DNA of 64,000 nucleotides. Origin: Pedobacter yonginensis (GTDB lineage Bacteria; Bacteroidota; Bacteroidia; Sphingobacteriales; Sphingobacteriaceae). Position 1 is the first letter of the stretch. The number at the start of each line of letters is the position of its first letter. The notes under the pieces were generated by a model. That model made no database searches and was not told where the DNA came from. It worked only from the letters and a program-made list of their open reading frames with translations. The stretch lies in assembly GCF_003173595.1 (NCBI RefSeq), contig NZ_QGNZ01000002.1, positions 558,001 through 622,000 on the forward strand, given 5' to 3'. Positions 16,788 through 23,152 of this stretch are shown here, piece by piece. Position numbers and translations under genes: made by a program.

Positions 16788-16813
16788 AAGAGACAGCAAT
16801 ATTACCGTCTCTT
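16788..16813 (-). terminator. Possible terminator for the TPR gene or cyanophycin operon
   Basis: AAGAGAC (16788-16794) pairs with GTCTCTT (16807-16813). On the minus strand the stem is followed by TTTTTGTTTTTTCG. It lies about 280 bp beyond the stop of the TPR protein, so a long 3' untranslated region would be needed. Confidence 0.5.
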
Positions 16814-17095: not shown

Positions 17096-17776
17096 CTATT
17101 TTTTTGGAGAAATCTTGATGGCAATAAGTTCTCTGGCGTCTTTAATCTGAGTTTTATACTGCGTGGTTTTGATAGAATTTGCCAGCCATTCTGCGCTTTT
17201 CAAATCTCTTAAAGCCAAGGTGAAATCTTTCTTTCTGATTTTGACTTGTGCAATGCCCAAAATAGATTCTATGTACGAATTATTGCTTTTCAGTTGTTTG
17301 GCTAGAATACCTTGCTGGGTGTAAAACCACATGGATTGGGTATATTTACTACTGGCCAAATACACTTTACCCAGTAAATTATAGGTATTCATTAAGCCAT
17401 TTTTACTACCCATTTTCGAATAGTTTTTGAGGGCAACATTTAGCAAAATTTGTTCGGCATCTGTAAATCGGCCTAACTGATAGTGCATATTGCTCATTTT
17501 TATGATGGCTTGACCATACCTATTGAAGTTTTTTACCGCACTATATTCGAAAGCCGCCTTGCCGAACAAGGTTAACGCTTCATTGAAGTCGCCTTTTCGT
17601 TCCAGATTTTCGGCTTCATCGAAAAACGAATTTCCATCGGCCTCATTAAATTTAGAAACGGCTATATTAATGGCATTGCCACCATTAGGTTCTTGATTTT
17701 CAGGGCGATCGATGTTTTGAGCGTAAAGTTGTAATGAGGCAAAAAGGCTAATAAAAGCCAAAACTATTTTGGTCAT
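17096..17776 (-). CDS. Secreted TPR-repeat protein in the cyanophycin operon
   Basis: This 226-residue protein has a signal peptide (FISLFASLQLYAQ, cleavage near residue 19). The rest is helical with tetratricopeptide-like repeats across about 50-205: alternating Ala/Gly/Tyr/Phe helices such as FNEALTLFGKAAFEYS and GLMNTYNLLGKVYLAS. TPR domains bind proteins; no enzymatic site is visible. It starts 29 bp after the isoaspartyl peptidase stop on the same strand, so it is probably co-transcribed with the cyanophycin-degrading genes, but a periplasmic scaffold has no obvious link to a cytoplasmic polymer. The link may be incidental. Confidence 0.8.
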   Translation of the reverse strand: MTKIVLAFISLFASLQLYAQNIDRPENQEPNGGNAINIAVSKFNEADGNSFFDEAENLERKGDFNEALTLFGKAAFEYSAVKNFNRYGQAIIKMSNMHYQLGRFTDAEQILLNVALKNYSKMGSKNGLMNTYNLLGKVYLASSKYTQSMWFYTQQGILAKQLKSNNSYIESILGIAQVKIRKKDFTLALRDLKSAEWLANSIKTTQYKTQIKDARELIAIKISPKK

Positions 17777-17805
17777 GCAACAAAAATAATACTTTAATTA
17801 CAATA

Positions 17806-18648
17806 TTAGCTAAATACCTGTAAATTAACATCAAATGAAGCCCAAACCATATATGGATGTGAATCACAGTGATAAATTTCGCCTTTTGCAGAGATGCCTA
17901 TAACACCTGCAAATCCGTCATAGGGTTTAAGCTCGGTGAAAGACTTGTCGCAGGCATCTTTTAGAGAAAAGCCATCTGTAACGCGGGTAACTATTTTTGC
18001 GGCTAAGGCTGTGCTGGTGATGTCTTCGCCCACCCCGGTGCAAGATATGCCAGCAAATGGATTTGCATAATTTCCTGCTACTGTAGCAGAATCGCTTACT
18101 CTACAAGGAATTTCAAATCCTTTGCCTCCTGTTGAGGTTGCGGCGGCTAAATTTCCATCTGAATCCAATGCCACGCAGCCAACTGTTCCCTTATTGTTTT
18201 TTTGGTTCAGCTTTGCTTCGTACTCCGTTTGGCGTTGGGTGGTTATCGGATCAAAATAATCGAATCCATTTGCACGGGCAAAATTCTGCGCACCTTCTCC
18301 ACTTAACACACGATCATCGTAAGTGATTAAAGTTTGGGCAATTTGTATCGGGTTTTTGACATTCTCTACGTTAATTACTCCACTAAATTTTTCAGTTTTA
18401 CCATCCATAAGTGATGCGCTTAACCTTACCTTTCCATCGCTCTGGATTTGAGAACCGATGCCTGCATTGAATAGCTCATTATCTTCCAAAAGCGCTACCG
18501 TATAAACTACAGTTTCTAAGGCGGTGTGTGTTTTTAAATATTCGTGGCCAAGGCTAACAATTTCTGATAAAGCATTTTGCTTCGCTTTTTTTGTTTCTTG
18601 GTTTGTTGATGACTCACTGAAAAAGCCACCATGTATGATTAATTTCAT
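17806..18648 (-). CDS. Isoaspartyl peptidase / plant-type L-asparaginase (Ntn hydrolase)
   Basis: This 280-residue Ntn-hydrolase-family protein is synthesised as a precursor that cuts itself before a Thr. The cleavage site KGTVGCVALD places the nucleophilic Thr near residue 154, giving subunits of about 153 and 127 residues; the downstream STGGKGFEIPCRVSDS and GVGEDI are also typical. Such enzymes (IaaA type) hydrolyse beta-aspartyl dipeptides. It lies 68 bp downstream of cyanophycinase, whose product is beta-Asp-Arg, so its likely role is the final step to Asp and Arg. It is somewhat shorter than E. coli IaaA (about 320). Confidence 0.93.
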   Translation of the reverse strand: MKLIIHGGFFSESSTNQETKKAKQNALSEIVSLGHEYLKTHTALETVVYTVALLEDNELFNAGIGSQIQSDGKVRLSASLMDGKTEKFSGVINVENVKNPIQIAQTLITYDDRVLSGEGAQNFARANGFDYFDPITTQRQTEYEAKLNQKNNKGTVGCVALDSDGNLAAATSTGGKGFEIPCRVSDSATVAGNYANPFAGISCTGVGEDITSTALAAKIVTRVTDGFSLKDACDKSFTELKPYDGFAGVIGISAKGEIYHCDSHPYMVWASFDVNLQVFS

Positions 18649-18716
18649 TTTGTTCGGTTGAAATAGCGAGCGCTAGATATCAAATTTGGCCTCTGAGGCC
18701 CTCAATCTTAAAAAAA

Positions 18717-19592
18717 TTAGCCTACCGGAATAACTTTGGGATGATGGATCACCAAACTGTGATCAGTTAAATCGTACACATCGCCATCGCACATTACGTG
18801 TACAACCATGTTTTTAATGGAAACCGGTTGTCCCATTTCCACATCGGTTAAATTAGTATCGGCCATGTTTCTACCATCTACCAAGATCACCATACCAGAG
18901 CCAATGGCTTCCATAATGTGTCCATCGGAAATGAAAAGACCTGTATCTTCACCCAATCCAATTCCTAAAATACCTGGGTTACTTGCGGCGGCATACAATA
19001 AGCGGCCAATTCTACCGCGCTGTACAAAGTGCGTATCTACAATCACATCATCAATAAAGCCCAGTCCGCCCGTAATTTTAACTTCGCCTTTAAGCAGAGC
19101 ATCTTTACTGCTTCCTTGGTAAATCATGTTTTTAGAACTTGCAGCAGCACCGGCAGATGTACCTGCAATCACAACGGGTTCATTTTTGTATTTTTCTAAT
19201 AGAATTTGATGGATTTTAGTGCCACCAAAAATGGATGATAAGCGAAGTTGATCGCCACCTGTAAATACAATAACATCTGCTGCTTTAATTCGCTCGCAGT
19301 TTTCTAAAGAATTTGCTTCTTCACGATTCGTGATGTTTAAAACACCCACATTATGAACATCTAATTGGGCATAAGCTTTGATGTATTCTTCACCAACCTT
19401 TTCGGGCATTAACGAAGCTGTGGTAATGATTTCAAAACGAGATTCTATGTCTTTTGTCGATTCTGTGGTAATCCGCTTTAGGATGCCGCGTTCAAAAAAG
19501 TTCATATTCTCTGGCAAGCCAAACTGCGTTTCTGCAAAGCTACCTGTGTTTATTGCGCCACCAATAATGATGAGTTTACCCTTCGGAACCAT
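18717..19592 (-). CDS. cphB: Cyanophycinase
   Basis: This 291-residue S51-type serine exopeptidase cuts cyanophycin (a poly-Asp backbone with Arg side chains) into beta-Asp-Arg dipeptides. It begins with a Rossmann-like KLIIIGGAINTG and has the nucleophile Ser in GTSAGAAA (near residue 145), the preceding FTGGDQLRLS loop, and the GLGFIDDVIVDTHFVQRGRIGRL block with the active His region. There is no signal peptide, so the enzyme is intracellular, as expected for granule mobilisation. It is divergent from cphA across 298 bp and is the first gene of a cphB-peptidase-TPR operon. Confidence 0.96.
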   Translation of the reverse strand: MVPKGKLIIIGGAINTGSFAETQFGLPENMNFFERGILKRITTESTKDIESRFEIITTASLMPEKVGEEYIKAYAQLDVHNVGVLNITNREEANSLENCERIKAADVIVFTGGDQLRLSSIFGGTKIHQILLEKYKNEPVVIAGTSAGAAASSKNMIYQGSSKDALLKGEVKITGGLGFIDDVIVDTHFVQRGRIGRLLYAAASNPGILGIGLGEDTGLFISDGHIMEAIGSGMVILVDGRNMADTNLTDVEMGQPVSIKNMVVHVMCDGDVYDLTDHSLVIHHPKVIPVG

Positions 19593-19890
19593 TCGTTGTG
19601 TTTATATTATTGTATCAAAAAACTCAAATATATCAGCTTATGATAAAAAACACGACTTTTTTTGTCAATATTATTCATTTTATTAACAAACGTTGAAATA
19701 ATTTGGGATAAAATCGACCTTCTTTATCCAAAAAATAAAACAAATCTTGTTAAAAATACATTTAGGTATTTGGGCTGCCGTTTTTCAAAATAAATGTATA
19801 ATTTACAATCACCAATTTATATACAATACAATCGAGTTTAATGGGCGCGAAATTGCTTGTTGATAAGTAAAAACAGACAGATTTTTTAAC
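19593..19890. promoter_or_regulatory. Divergent cphB/cphA control region
   Basis: This is the 298-bp region between the degradation and synthesis genes. On the minus strand TATATTTG (19625-19632) matches the -7 consensus about 33 nt before cphB. An inverted repeat GGATAAA (19706-19712) / TTTATCC (19723-19729) with a 10-bp spacer lies mid-region and could bind a dimeric regulator. No convincing -7 box was found for cphA. Confidence 0.4.
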
Positions 19891-22506
19891 ATGAAGATAT
19901 CAAACTTACAAGTATTAAGAGGGCCAAATATATGGTCGATAAGCCGTAAAAAACTCATCCAAATGCGATTAGATTTGGAGGAATTGGAACAAAGACCTAC
20001 CAATGTAATTGAGGGTTTTGGAGAACGATTGGAAAAATTAATTCCAAGCATGTTCAGTCATCGCTGTTCTAAAGGTGTGGAAGGTGGTTTTTTTGCCAGA
20101 GTGAAAGAAGGCACCTGGATGGGCCACGTTATTGAACATATTGCTTTAGAAATTCAAACCATTGCCGGAATGGAAACTGGCTTTGGCCGTACGAGACAAA
20201 CCAAAACTGAAGGCATTTATAATGTAGTATTTAGTTACCTCGAAGAAAAAGTTGGTGTTTATGCTGCTGAGGCTGCTGTAAATATTGCCCAGGCTTTAAT
20301 TGACAATGTAGAATATGATTTAGAGCACGACATCAGGCGGATGAAAGAAATCCGCGAGTTAGAAGCGCTAGGTCCAAGTACAGGTTCTATTGTTGAAGAA
20401 GCTGTGAGCAGGAGTATTCCTTGGATTAGATTAAACAAGAGTTCTTTGGTGCAGTTGGGCTATGGCAAAAATCAAGTGCGTTTTAGGGCCACCATGACCG
20501 AGCAAACCAGCAGCATTGCAGTTGATATTGCCAGTAATAAAGAAGAAACAAAAAGATTATTAACTGAAGCGGCAATACCTGTTGCTTCTGGAGTGACCAT
20601 TTCAAACCCAGATGATTTGGAAGCATCGGTTAAAAAGGTTGGCTTTCCATTGGTATTTAAGCCTTTAGATGGGAATCATGGAAAAGGGGCTACCATCAAC
20701 GTTAAAACTTTAGAGGCTGCCAAAGAAGCTTTTGAGTATGCCAAAACCTATTCTCGCCGGGTTATCATCGAAAAATTCATTACTGGATACGATTTTCGTG
20801 TTTTAGTGATTGACCATAAAGTGGTTGCTGCTGCACAACGCGATCCGGCTCATGTTAAGGGTAATGGTATTCATACCATTCAAGAATTGATTGATAAGGA
20901 AAATGAAGATCCACGTCGTGGTTATGGCCACGAAAATGTGTTAACCGAAATTGCTGTTGATCGGGATACTTTGGATTTATTGGCGAAGAAAGAATACACT
21001 TTAGAAACCATTCCAGAAAAAGGTGAAGTTGTGTATTTGAAATCGACTGCCAATTTAAGCACTGGTGGAACGTCTATTGATGTTACGGATATTGTTCACC
21101 CACAAAATATTTTCATTTGTGAGCGAATCTCTCGCGTAATTGGTTTGGACATTTGCGGGATAGATATTATGGCGCAAAATTTAACCCAACCTTTAACTGA
21201 AAACGGTGGCGTGGTATTGGAAGTGAATGCTGCTCCAGGGTTTAGGATGCACTTGGCTCCAAGTGAAGGCTTGCCAAGAAATGTTGCGGCTTCTGTAATT
21301 GATATGCTTTACCCGCCGGGAAAATTATCGCAAATTCCAATTATTGCGGTTACTGGAACCAATGGAAAAACAACTACTACCCGTTTAATTGCTCACATTA
21401 TCAGAAGCAATGGTAAACGTGTGGGTTTCACCACCAGTGATGGTATATATGTGCACAATACCATGCTCATGCAGGGCGATACTACTGGGCCAGTAAGTGC
21501 AGAATTTATTTTAAAAGATCCAACAGTTGAATTTGCCGTTTTAGAGACCGCCAGAGGGGGGATCTTGCGTTCGGGATTGGGTTTTAATGCTTGCGATATT
21601 GGTGTGATAACAAATATTCAGGAAGACCATTTGGGCATTGCAGATATCCACAATCTTGATGATTTAACCCGAGTTAAAGAGGTTGTTATTGGAGCCGTAC
21701 GCCGTAAAGGATGGGCCGTTTTAAATGCAGATAATGGCTACTGTGTGAAGATAGCCAGAAATGCCCGCTGTAACGTGGCGTATTTCAGTATGGATGAGAA
21801 TAATCCAGTTATTAAAGACCATTGTAAAAAAGGTGGTATAGCTGCGATTTACGAGAATGGCTTTATCACCATTAAAACTGGCGACTGGAAATTGAGGGTT
21901 GACAAAGCCACTCACATTCCTTTAACATTTGGTGGAGCAGTAAACTTCATGATTCAGAATGTGTTAGCGGCAACCCTTGCAACTTATTTGTGGGGTTATA
22001 AACCGGAGGATATTCGTTTATCATTAGAAACTTTTATTCCTTCTGCTGCACATACTCCAGGTAGAATGAATGTGTTTAGGTTTAAAGATTTTAAAATTTT
22101 GGTAGATTTTGCACATAATCCAGATGGCTTTAATGGAGTAAAAGCCTATTTACAGAGTGTTGAGGCTACGCAACATGTAGGAATAATATCTGGAACGGGC
22201 GATAGGCGTGACGAGGACATTATCGAAACGGCCCGCATTGCAGGCCAGATGTTCGATAAAATTTACATTTGCCAAGAAAAGTATTTGCGTGGACGAGCGC
22301 AACAAGAGCTAATTGATTTACTGATTAAAGGCATCCATCAGGCTGATCCAAACAAGGAAATTATCATTAACAATAAGAGCACAGCCTGTTTGGAGGAGGC
22401 CATAAATACCGCAATTAAAGGTTCGTACATCACAATTTTAAGCAATACCATTGACAACACCATCCAAAGAGTTACTGAACACTTGGATAGAGAACTGGAG
22501 GCTTAG
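19891..22506 (+). CDS. cphA: Cyanophycin synthetase
   Basis: This 871-residue enzyme matches the length of CphA1, which polymerises Asp and Arg using ATP without a ribosome. The N-terminal domain (about 1-160) precedes an ATP-grasp domain (about 165-480), seen in FKPLDGNHGKGATINV and VLEVNAAPGFRMHLAP, that activates the backbone carboxylate. The C-terminal Mur-ligase-like domain has the P-loop GTNGKTTTTRL near 489, then ETARGGILRSGLG and the DFAHNPDGF region; it adds Arg side chains. Both modules and the N-domain are complete, so this is the full two-substrate enzyme, not the shorter CphA2. It is divergent from cphB and closed by a terminator at 22651. Confidence 0.96.
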   Translation: MKISNLQVLRGPNIWSISRKKLIQMRLDLEELEQRPTNVIEGFGERLEKLIPSMFSHRCSKGVEGGFFARVKEGTWMGHVIEHIALEIQTIAGMETGFGRTRQTKTEGIYNVVFSYLEEKVGVYAAEAAVNIAQALIDNVEYDLEHDIRRMKEIRELEALGPSTGSIVEEAVSRSIPWIRLNKSSLVQLGYGKNQVRFRATMTEQTSSIAVDIASNKEETKRLLTEAAIPVASGVTISNPDDLEASVKKVGFPLVFKPLDGNHGKGATINVKTLEAAKEAFEYAKTYSRRVIIEKFITGYDFRVLVIDHKVVAAAQRDPAHVKGNGIHTIQELIDKENEDPRRGYGHENVLTEIAVDRDTLDLLAKKEYTLETIPEKGEVVYLKSTANLSTGGTSIDVTDIVHPQNIFICERISRVIGLDICGIDIMAQNLTQPLTENGGVVLEVNAAPGFRMHLAPSEGLPRNVAASVIDMLYPPGKLSQIPIIAVTGTNGKTTTTRLIAHIIRSNGKRVGFTTSDGIYVHNTMLMQGDTTGPVSAEFILKDPTVEFAVLETARGGILRSGLGFNACDIGVITNIQEDHLGIADIHNLDDLTRVKEVVIGAVRRKGWAVLNADNGYCVKIARNARCNVAYFSMDENNPVIKDHCKKGGIAAIYENGFITIKTGDWKLRVDKATHIPLTFGGAVNFMIQNVLAATLATYLWGYKPEDIRLSLETFIPSAAHTPGRMNVFRFKDFKILVDFAHNPDGFNGVKAYLQSVEATQHVGIISGTGDRRDEDIIETARIAGQMFDKIYICQEKYLRGRAQQELIDLLIKGIHQADPNKEIIINNKSTACLEEAINTAIKGSYITILSNTIDNTIQRVTEHLDRELEA

Positions 22507-22650
22507 GCTAATATTTTAATTTAAACAAAAGAAGGTTATATCAGTAATCGAAATGAGCTGTATCGCCTGAATTTAATTTTGAAGCACTTAAGAAACGAAG
22601 GCCAAAAAAACCGACGTTAGAAATTTGTGAGCAAAAATTAACTTAAAAAA

Positions 22651-22679
22651 AAAAGCACTTCCAATGGAGGTGCTTTTTT
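22651..22679. terminator. Bidirectional terminator between cphA and the DUF2383 gene
   Basis: AAAAGCACTTCC (22651-22662) and GGAGGTGCTTTT (22666-22677) form a 12-bp stem with one G-T wobble and a short loop. It is flanked by A-runs on one side and T-runs on the other, suited to stop both converging transcripts. Confidence 0.85.
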
Positions 22680-22696: not shown

Positions 22697-23152
22697 TTAT
22701 GCTTGAGAATCGCGTAATCTTTTGATTTCATCGTGCGATCGTCTTAACGATGATTTTTGATCAGAAATTAAATCTCTGATGTTTGAGGGTAAGTCTTCTT
22801 CTTCGAGAGCCAGTTTATAAGCATTTTGAGCAGCGTCTTCACCAAACTCACAATTGTTTAAAACTGTTTGGCGATCGTGACCTGTGAACAATGCTTTTAC
22901 ATCCATCCATCCTCTGTAAATTTTACCAGATGTAGTGGTGCCAGTATCAATATCTGAACCAGATGCTGCAACTTCGGTAGCCAAAGCCATTTTGTATTTC
23001 TGGCTTTCTTCAATCATATTTAAGAATAGAGATTTCAAATCGGCATCGCCATCTTTTAGTTCTTTGCGGGCTTTTTCATAACCTTCTATACGGTCGTTAT
23101 TAATTTGAATAAGGTCGTTTAAAACCTCTGCTGTTGCTGTTGTCGTTTTCAT
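22697..23152 (-). CDS. PA2169-type four-helix-bundle protein (DUF2383)
   Basis: This 151-residue helical protein begins MKTTTATAEVLNDLIQINNDRIEGYEKA. It shows the two-part ferritin-like pattern of DUF2383: a first helix pair with conserved Glu/Asp, a Ser/Thr/Gly linker (SGSDIDTGTTTSGKIYRGW) and a second pair with CEFGEDAAQNAYK. Members resemble ferritin-fold bundles and are often stress- or stationary-phase-induced; no metal-binding function is established to my knowledge. It is convergent with cphA and transcribed alone. Confidence 0.88.
   Translation of the reverse strand: MKTTTATAEVLNDLIQINNDRIEGYEKARKELKDGDADLKSLFLNMIEESQKYKMALATEVAASGSDIDTGTTTSGKIYRGWMDVKALFTGHDRQTVLNNCEFGEDAAQNAYKLALEEEDLPSNIRDLISDQKSSLRRSHDEIKRLRDSQA

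What the first reader, a model, noticed from the sequence alone, without database searches (positions are those of the whole stretch)
17096..22506. Complete cyanophycin cycle in a Bacteroidota genome
The sequence shows cyanophycin synthetase (full ATP-grasp plus Mur-ligase modules, 871 residues) divergent from cyanophycinase and an isoaspartyl peptidase. The family roles are established: polymer synthesis, release of beta-Asp-Arg, and cleavage to Asp and Arg. A nitrogen and carbon store in this heterotrophic lineage is a clear physiological prediction, and the divergent arrangement suggests opposed regulation.
Basis: partly seen in the sequence, partly recalled or inferred. Interest (0 to 1): 0.65.

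Follow-up and report, generated by a model that had tools for sequence, protein, structure and literature searches.

The report
Cyanophycin cycle with divergent dipeptidase
This bacterium (genus Pedobacter) carries a three-gene set to make and break down the nitrogen-storage polymer cyanophycin, which is already known in its phylum, but the last gene belongs to a short, divergent enzyme branch that travels with this set and may be the last-step enzyme that a published survey listed as undiscovered there.

Summary
The genes are real. CphA (19891-22506, 871 aa) passes NCBI's cyanophycin synthetase cut-off and keeps all but one of the published catalytic residues checked. CphB (18717-19592) passes the cyanophycinase cut-off. 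The third enzyme (17806-18648, 280 aa) is a plant-type asparaginase/isoaspartyl peptidase homologue with the catalytic Thr and all Asp-binding residues. The window is from Pedobacter.

CphA plus cyanophycinase in Bacteroidota is already published (86 genomes, PMC10206079), so the cycle alone is not new. The peptidase is the interesting part: a well-separated clade ("type I") with its own active-site motif. In 151 genomes of the family, 89 of 90 CphA-positive and 2 of 61 CphA-negative genomes carry it; 86 of 90 have it within 5 kb of cphA. No IadA match was found in the 151. PMC10206079 says the Bacteroidota dipeptidase remains undiscovered; in a phylum-wide sample 25 of 33 CphA-positive genomes carry type I (17) or a canonical IaaA near cphA (8).

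No activity, polymer, substrate specificity or regulation was shown. Storage physiology and "opposed regulation" remain predictions.

The parts
19891..22506 (+). cphA: cyanophycin synthetase 1 (N domain with Cx19HxxEH motif, ATP-grasp G domain, Mur-ligase M domain), 871 aa
   Evidence: TIGR02068 1252 bits vs cut-off 850; Pfam Cyanophycin_syn N-domain, RimK/ATP-grasp, Mur_ligase_M, Mur_ligase_C; residues 1-857 aligned to PDB 7lg5; C59, H79, E82, H83, H57, F67, R70, E87, R100 present
19593..19890 (.). 298-bp divergent cphB/cphA spacer with separately conserved blocks at the two sides; on the cphB side an invariant TATATTTG (cphB strand) and a conserved TTGACA-17-TATCAT match
   Evidence: alignment of 16 Pedobacter spacers; TTGACA/TATCAT 11 of 12 on the minus strand at 19668-19640, but the scan's total is at chance level, 18 found vs 20.5 expected
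18717..19592 (-). cphB: intracellular-type cyanophycinase (peptidase family S51), 291 aa, GTSAGA motif
   Evidence: TIGR02069 221.5 bits vs 126.6; the three solved chains matched, 7uqv, 3en0 and 7uqw, are all named cyanophycinase
17806..18648 (-). type I isoaspartyl peptidase (short, divergent plant-type asparaginase family, Ntn hydrolase), 280 aa; proposed beta-Asp-Arg hydrolase
   Evidence: PF01112 267.7 bits; T155, T173, R183, D186, S187, T204, G205 match the catalytic and Asp-binding residues of EcIaaA; fold match to EcAIII and human asparaginase-like protein; linkage to cphA
17096..17776 (-). 226-aa protein with weak TPR matches, 29 bases downstream of the peptidase gene; associated, not a known part of the cycle
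   Evidence: TPR matches below Pfam cut-offs; a homologue lies beside the locus in most Pedobacter loci, none was matched at 1e-8 in the Mucilaginibacter loci
16788..16813 (-). terminator-like hairpin downstream of the cphB-peptidase-TPR run
   Evidence: number of such sites in the region at chance level, 5 vs 5.5
22649..22679 (+). terminator-like hairpin (14 pairs) downstream of cphA
   Evidence: number of such sites in the region at chance level, 5 vs 5.5

Best explanation
The locus encodes a self-contained intracellular cyanophycin cycle. CphA polymerises Asp and Arg with ATP; its intact N-domain Cx19HxxEH motif predicts that it needs no added primer. CphB releases beta-Asp-Arg dipeptides. 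The 280-aa type I peptidase, made as a precursor that should cut itself before Thr155, hydrolyses the isopeptide bond to give Asp and Arg. Type I is a divergent branch of the IaaA family kept mainly for this job. Shown here: gene identity, conserved catalytic and Asp-binding residues, clade separation, and linkage and co-occurrence with cphA. Inferred: enzyme activities, polymer identity, self-cleavage, role in storage.
For: Curated models over cut-off for CphA and CphB. CphA residues named in PMC9262961 and PMC9427784 (passages) are present when read by eye off the alignment to SuCphA1: C59/H79/E82/H83, and the positions of K220, K261, H267, R309, R323, N394, S396, R458, K499, E558 (T522 is Ser). 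Peptidase: EcIaaA T179, T197, R207, D210, S211, T230, G231 (PMC10206079) correspond to T155, T173, R183, D186, S187, T204, G205, invariant in 19 of 19 type I rows. Sphingobacteriaceae, 151 genomes: type I in 89 of 90 CphA-positive and 2 of 61 CphA-negative, 86 of 90 within 5 kb. Outside that family, in the phylum sample: type I in 11 of 29 CphA-positive and 3 of 259 CphA-negative. cphB and the peptidase gene are co-directional in 79 of 79 loci and within 10 bp or overlapping in 26 of 79. In 8 of 33 CphA-positive genomes of the phylum sample a canonical IaaA without an obvious signal peptide lies near cphA, directly beside cphB in 7 of the 8. IadA model: no match at E <= 1e-20 in 151 genomes; AstE/AspA model PF04952: none in the window's genome. 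The canonical IaaA of the window's genome begins with a signal-peptide-like stretch (by eye), so type I is the cytosolic candidate.
Against: No activity data. Type I also occurs without CphA: two orphans in the family sample (G065, G118) and three genomes of family f12. One CphA-positive genome of the family sample (G062) lacks type I, and 8 of 33 CphA-positive genomes of the phylum sample show no IaaA-family gene within about 7 kb of cphA. The published IaaA and IadA from cph clusters were promiscuous (PMC10206079), so linkage does not prove specificity. The AlphaFold model is weak at the active-site loop (residues 177-189 below 50 pLDDT) and the five models averaged 80, 64, 56, 50 and 48. 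Co-occurrence counts are not corrected for relatedness. M14 peptidases (PF00246) and the genome's third PF01112 protein were not examined as alternatives.
Confidence: 0.82

Rival explanations
1. The type I peptidase is a general isoaspartyl aminopeptidase that clears isoaspartyl dipeptides from damaged proteins; it may cleave beta-Asp-Arg as well, but its place beside cphB is convenient, not dedicated. (This overlaps with the best explanation on activity and differs on role.)
For: Family members, even from cph clusters, are promiscuous (PMC10206079). The two orphan copies persist without a cphA or cphB match.
Against: Presence tracks cphA (89 of 90 against 2 of 61); a housekeeping enzyme should stay when cphA is lost. 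It differs at 35 clade-invariant positions from the 14 canonical rows compared.
Confidence: 0.3
2. The CphA homologue makes a different Asp-backbone polymer (for example with Lys, ornithine or citrulline side chains), and the peptidase cleaves the matching dipeptide.
For: Some CphA1 enzymes also incorporate Lys, at lower efficiency (PMC10206079). M-domain residues for Arg choice were not tested here.
Against: The protein matches SuCphA1 end to end (969 bits, query residues 1-857), with all but one of the published positions checked kept.
Confidence: 0.1
3. The locus serves mainly to scavenge outside cyanophycin rather than to store it.
For: In f12 genomes type I occurs without a CphA match; in two of them it lies near cyanophycinase-family proteins with signal-like starts, in one of these with a TonB receptor and a DcuC-family transporter.
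Against: The window locus holds an intact CphA and no transporter among the genes annotated, and CphB starts at its catalytic domain without a signal-like stretch (by eye).
Confidence: 0.07

Closest known systems
Cyanophycin synthetase 1 (SuCphA1, PDB 7lg5; PDB 7wac)
   Same: Full three-domain architecture, N-domain Cx19HxxEH primer-making motif, Asp-recognition and ATP-site residues
   Different: Position T522 is Ser; E90 is Thr; 871 aa against solved chains of 879 and 910
Cyanophycinase CphB (PDB 3en0, 7uqv; TIGR02069)
   Same: S51 family, over the curated cut-off, GTSAGA motif
   Different: Nothing notable found
Isoaspartyl aminopeptidase IaaA / EcAIII (PDB 2zak, 2zal) and the cph-cluster enzyme RhIaaA (PMC10206079)
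   Same: Fold (TM-scores 0.79-0.87 to EcAIII chains 2zak and 3c17), catalytic Thr and all Asp-binding residues
   Different: 280 aa instead of about 320; shorter stretch before the catalytic Thr; 35 positions invariant in 25 type I rows and never so in 14 canonical rows, among them K176-G177-F178-E179 for M-T-N-K, S185 for G, D209 for F/Y
Cyanophycin dipeptide hydrolase of alpha- and gamma-Proteobacteria (annotated as M14 / succinylglutamate desuccinylase-aspartoacylase family; known here only through PMC10206079; that it is the enzyme called CphZ is recalled)
   Same: Would fill the same step of the pathway; also found by cphA1-cyanophycinase clusters
   Different: Unrelated family; no PF04952 match in this genome

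Membership tests
Cyanophycin synthetase 1 (CphA1) | Over the curated equivalog cut-off TIGR02068 | tested here: met
   1252 bits vs 850
Cyanophycin synthetase 1 (CphA1) | Catalytic residues of the G and M domains named in PMC9427784 | tested here: met
   10 of 11 positions checked are identical, read by eye from the alignment with TeCphA1 numbers taken as SuCphA1's; T522 is Ser
Cyanophycin synthetase 1 (CphA1) | N-domain Cx19HxxEH motif (in 83% of nr70 CphA1s; absent from CphA2, PMC9262961) | tested here: met
   C59, H79, E82, H83
Cyanophycin synthetase 1 (CphA1) | Makes multi-L-Arg-poly-L-Asp | not testable with these tools
   needs enzyme assay
Cyanophycinase CphB | Over TIGR02069 cut-off, S51 family | tested here: met
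   221.5 bits vs 126.6; PF03575 70.5 bits vs 23.9
Cyanophycinase CphB | Releases beta-Asp-Arg from cyanophycin | not testable with these tools
   needs enzyme assay
Plant-type asparaginase / IaaA family (PF01112) | Over Pfam cut-off and Ntn asparaginase fold | tested here: met
   267.7 bits vs 27; best structure matches are asparaginase / isoaspartyl peptidase chains
Plant-type asparaginase / IaaA family (PF01112) | Catalytic Thr and Asp-binding residues (EcIaaA T179, T197, R207, D210, S211, T230, G231) | tested here: met
   all seven present and invariant in 19 of 19 type I rows
NCBIfam equivalog beta-aspartyl-peptidase NF007589 | Over curated cut-off 567 bits | tested here: not met
   144.6 bits. 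Three canonical Bacteroidota IaaAs also miss it (347-359 bits), so the cut-off is narrow; not filed as this equivalog
Plant-type asparaginase / IaaA family (PF01112) | Self-cleavage before Thr and activity on beta-aspartyl dipeptides | not testable with these tools
   needs purified protein
IadA zinc dipeptidase (TIGR01975) | Presence in these genomes as the alternative last step | tested here: not met
   0 of 151 genomes at E <= 1e-20; the E. coli control rings

The most novel reading that the evidence does not exclude
The type I clade is an Ntn-type isoaspartyl peptidase specialised for cyanophycin dipeptides, perhaps the first of its family. Its KGFE/SDSAT/GED active-site set would bind the Arg (or Lys) part of beta-Asp-Arg, and it would fill much of the gap that PMC10206079 left open for Bacteroidota. 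The two orphan copies, in genomes without cphA and cphB matches, have changed E179 to Q, as expected if E179 serves the Arg side.
Probability: 0.4. Interest if true: 0.6.

Novelty: new variant of a known kind. Interest (0 to 1): 0.42.

Why it matters
PMC10206079 found an isoaspartyl dipeptidase in only 22.1% of CphA1-bearing Bacteroidota and called the enzyme of this phylum undiscovered. The type I clade is a concrete, assayable candidate with a sharp sequence signature and a specific prediction about specificity. If it is specialised, it would be a case of the promiscuous IaaA family narrowing to cyanophycin, to compare with the unrelated dipeptide hydrolases of Proteobacteria. It also makes cyanophycin storage in Pedobacter, Mucilaginibacter and their relatives directly testable.

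Tried and rejected
Considered and rejected: (a) that the peptidase is broken or an unrelated asparaginase: the catalytic residues are kept and the clade is strongly conserved. (b) That IadA or an AstE/AspA-type hydrolase does the last step in this genome: neither model matches; other M14 peptidases were not searched. (c) That the locus is peculiar to this genome: it is common in Pedobacter and Mucilaginibacter and found in a Daejeonella. (d) Neighbours of cphA in genomes without an adjacent IaaA as alternative dipeptidases: of the 10 proteins scanned, 8 come from L208-L211 and are glycoside hydrolases (3, one with a response-regulator domain), an aminotransferase, an outer-membrane channel, a DUF6438 protein, an S41 peptidase and an S1-domain protein; no convincing candidate, but not every neighbour was scanned. 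(e) Reading the leaving-group pocket from an AlphaFold model: the loop is below 50 pLDDT and no coordinates were available. (f) Consensus promoter and terminator scan: counts at chance level. (g) A Pedobacter mendelii protein, WP_188415469.1, is a query in PMC10206079 (listed under IadA, though the two lists look swapped, since Roseivivax is listed there and is an IaaA in the text).

Papers: PMC10206079 outline, parts 1-2 of 5 of the whole text, sections 7, 8, 10. PMC9262961, PMC9427784, PMC10687191, PMC11573002, PMC12661447: passages only. The paper on the cyanophycin dipeptide hydrolase: not seen, known through PMC10206079. No paper on the type I clade was seen in the listings of searches; these cover only openly licensed PMC papers, and searches listed 20 of 1,433, 31 and 769. 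Recalled, from no call: the Bacteroidota promoter box TAnnTTTG, the role of GTSAGA as the cyanophycinase nucleophile motif, and the name CphZ for the M14/AstE-type enzyme.
Full report
WHAT IS THERE. The window lies in a 4.37 Mb genome. I place it in Pedobacter by inference: genome G127, labelled 'same genus', has a 163,911-base contig carrying the locus with a peptidase at 93%, and the named record of that length and identity is Pedobacter fastidiosus. The gaps are 298 bp between cphB and cphA, 68 bp between cphB and the peptidase, and 29 bp between the peptidase and the TPR gene.

CphA. It scores 1252 bits against the TIGR02068 cut-off of 850 and aligns over residues 1-857 with the solved cyanophycin synthase 7lg5. 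The residues whose importance is stated in PMC9427784 and PMC9262961 (passages) were read by eye off that alignment. The N-domain zinc site C59-x19-H79xxE82H83, with H57, F67, R70, E87 and R100, is present; E90 is Thr. Primer-independent synthesis is therefore predicted. At 10 of 11 G- and M-domain positions checked the residue is identical (K220, K261, H267, R309, R323, N394, S396, R458, K499, E558); the eleventh, T522, is Ser. Residues that choose Arg over Lys in the M domain were not tested.

CphB. 221.5 bits against the TIGR02069 cut-off of 126.6. The three solved chains that match are all named cyanophycinase, and the GTSAGA motif is present.

THE PEPTIDASE IS A DIVERGENT CLADE. It has 280 aa, about 40 fewer than E. 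coli IaaA (320), and scores 144.6 bits on the NCBIfam beta-aspartyl-peptidase model, where three canonical Bacteroidota IaaAs score 347-359; all miss the 567-bit cut-off. The seven residues that hold the Asp part of the substrate or act as nucleophile in EcIaaA (named in PMC10206079) are present and invariant in 19 of 19 type I rows. In a comparison of 25 type I rows with 14 canonical rows, 35 positions are invariant in type I and never have that residue in the canonical set (the two orphans, the glycosylasparaginase-like row and four other PF01112 rows were left out of that count, and two of those four do not have the MTNK motif themselves). Several of the 35 flank the active site in sequence: K176 G177 F178 E179 where the 14 have M T N K; S185 for G; A188 for P; D209 for F/Y; D262 for F. 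In a maximum-likelihood tree of 46 rows, type I with f12 and the orphans forms one group, support 99/99, on a branch of 4.25 changes per column; such a long branch calls for caution about its placement. The AlphaFold model (mean pLDDT 80.1, pTM 0.85; the other four models averaged 64 down to 48) matches EcAIII and human asparaginase-like protein, but the active-site loop is not resolved.

LINKAGE AND CO-OCCURRENCE. In 151 genomes of the order sample, all in one family (f1, Sphingobacteriaceae), 90 have a CphA match at E <= 1e-180, all over the cut-off, and 91 have type I at E <= 4.1e-120, the next match being at 1.1e-32. Both occur in 89; 86 of the 90 have them within 5 kb, 2 at about 14 kb, one (G024) far apart, and one (G062) has no type I. 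Type I without a CphA match: G065 and G118, both also without a cyanophycinase match at E <= 1e-5. Fisher's exact p is 2e-38, but relatedness is not corrected for. This set was chosen by the peptidase and so does not measure frequency. cphB and the peptidase gene lie within 10 bp or overlap in 26 of 79 (starts taken as the first Met), as expected of an operon.

WIDER BACTEROIDOTA. In 296 genomes sampled across the phylum, 35 match CphA at E <= 1e-180 and 33 are over the cut-off. I dropped the two below it, G326 and G373, from the count. Of the 33, 17 carry type I (16 within 5 kb of cphA by the coordinates; in G401 the cphB-peptidase pair lies on another contig) and 8 carry a canonical 306-310-aa IaaA without an obvious signal peptide within 5 kb of cphA; it faces cphB, directly beside it in 7 of the 8, with two ORFs between in G316, whose cphA is itself interrupted. 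The other 8 (G194, G221, G244, G272, G311, G375, G386, G435) show no IaaA-family gene in about 7 kb on each side; five of them (G194, G272, G375, G386, G435) have a more distant PF01112-type match elsewhere, which I did not examine. So 25 of 33 carry type I or a canonical IaaA near cphA, 24 of 33 within 5 kb. Six of the 33 are Sphingobacteriaceae also in the first sample. Outside that family type I is in 11 of 29 CphA-matching genomes (the two below cut-off included) and in 3 of 259 others. Those three, of family f12, have no CphA match. In G155 and G151 the type I gene lies near cyanophycinase-family proteins with signal-like starts, one of them with a T9SS-tail match just under Pfam's cut-off; the G155 locus also holds a DcuC-family transporter, an RpiR-type regulator, an M14 peptidase and a TonB receptor. 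In G165 the peptidase is at the start of one contig and the cyanophycinases are on another. This looks like a scavenging locus.

COMPARISON WITH WHAT IS PUBLISHED. PMC10206079 reports 86 Bacteroidota genomes with CphA1, all with a cyanophycinase and 22.1% with IadA and/or IaaA, and says that the isoaspartyl dipeptidases of Firmicutes and Bacteroidota 'remain undiscovered'. My sample gives a much higher share of IaaA-family genes. The difference may come from sampling (complete RefSeq genomes of May 2022 against one genome per species) or from detection; I could not decide, and the authors' query list includes a Pedobacter mendelii protein that may be this very enzyme. IaaA and IadA from cph clusters were promiscuous, so specificity of type I must not be assumed.

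WHY TYPE I IS PROBABLY THE LAST STEP. It is the PF01112 protein tied to cphA in this lineage. The canonical IaaA of the window's genome (L220) and of two other Pedobacter genomes read (L221, L222) starts with a signal-peptide-like stretch (judged by eye, no predictor run). A third PF01112 match of the genome is counted, but its place was not among the listed rows and I did not examine it. The IadA model matches none of the 151 genomes at E <= 1e-20 and the PF04952 model finds nothing in this genome. In other Bacteroidota a canonical, apparently cytosolic IaaA takes nearly the same place. The two orphan copies, in genomes without cphA or cphB matches, changed 3 of the 35 clade-defining positions (E179 to Q, V206 to I, F246 to C). 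They are sister sequences, so this counts as one event.

REGULATION. The 298-bp spacer has conserved blocks on the cphB side and on the cphA side, with a variable middle, in 16 aligned Pedobacter spacers, as expected of two divergent promoters. A TATATTTG box and a TTGACA-17-TATCAT match lie on the cphB side; the general consensus scan is at chance level. Nothing here tests opposed regulation.

VERDICT. The finding is real and mostly ordinary: a known pathway, in a phylum where it is already recorded. Its value lies in the third gene, a divergent, cph-linked peptidase clade that gives a concrete candidate for a step recorded as missing. Activity, specificity and physiology are unproven.

Noticed in passing
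L195 and L227 (G155), L196 and L228 (G151), L229 (G165): Family f12 genomes carry cyanophycinase-family proteins with signal-like starts (one with a T9SS-tail match just under Pfam's cut-off); in G155 they lie with a DcuC-family transporter, an RpiR-type regulator, an M14 peptidase, an enolase-superfamily enzyme and a TonB receptor near a type I peptidase: a likely cyanophycin-scavenging locus.
   Followed up: partly
L221 (G126:C6), L222 (G086:C3) and other Pedobacter genomes: A second, weaker cyanophycinase-family gene (about 150-166 bits) lies next to the canonical, probably exported IaaA in several Pedobacter genomes: a possible periplasmic scavenging pair.
   Followed up: no
L213 (G244), L214 (G386), L215 (G375): Two adjacent CphA-like genes, the second shorter; in G244 the second holds Mur-ligase domains. 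A cyanophycinase lies beside them only in G386.
   Followed up: no
L207 6903-11969 (G316): CphA appears interrupted by an insertion carrying three ORFs (97, 113 and 522 aa).
   Followed up: no
L218 10489-11489 (G062): A co-directional cphA-cphB-IaaA run whose IaaA reads in two frames in this assembly.
   Followed up: no
window 22697-23152: A DUF2383/PA2169-family four-helix-bundle gene lies beside cphA in many Pedobacter loci; a 35% homologue lies near cphA in L204 (G356).
   Followed up: no
L102 (G401:C26) and L219 (G401:C51): The cphB-type I pair lies on another contig than cphA, well inside both contigs, so the pair can part from the synthetase.
   Followed up: partly
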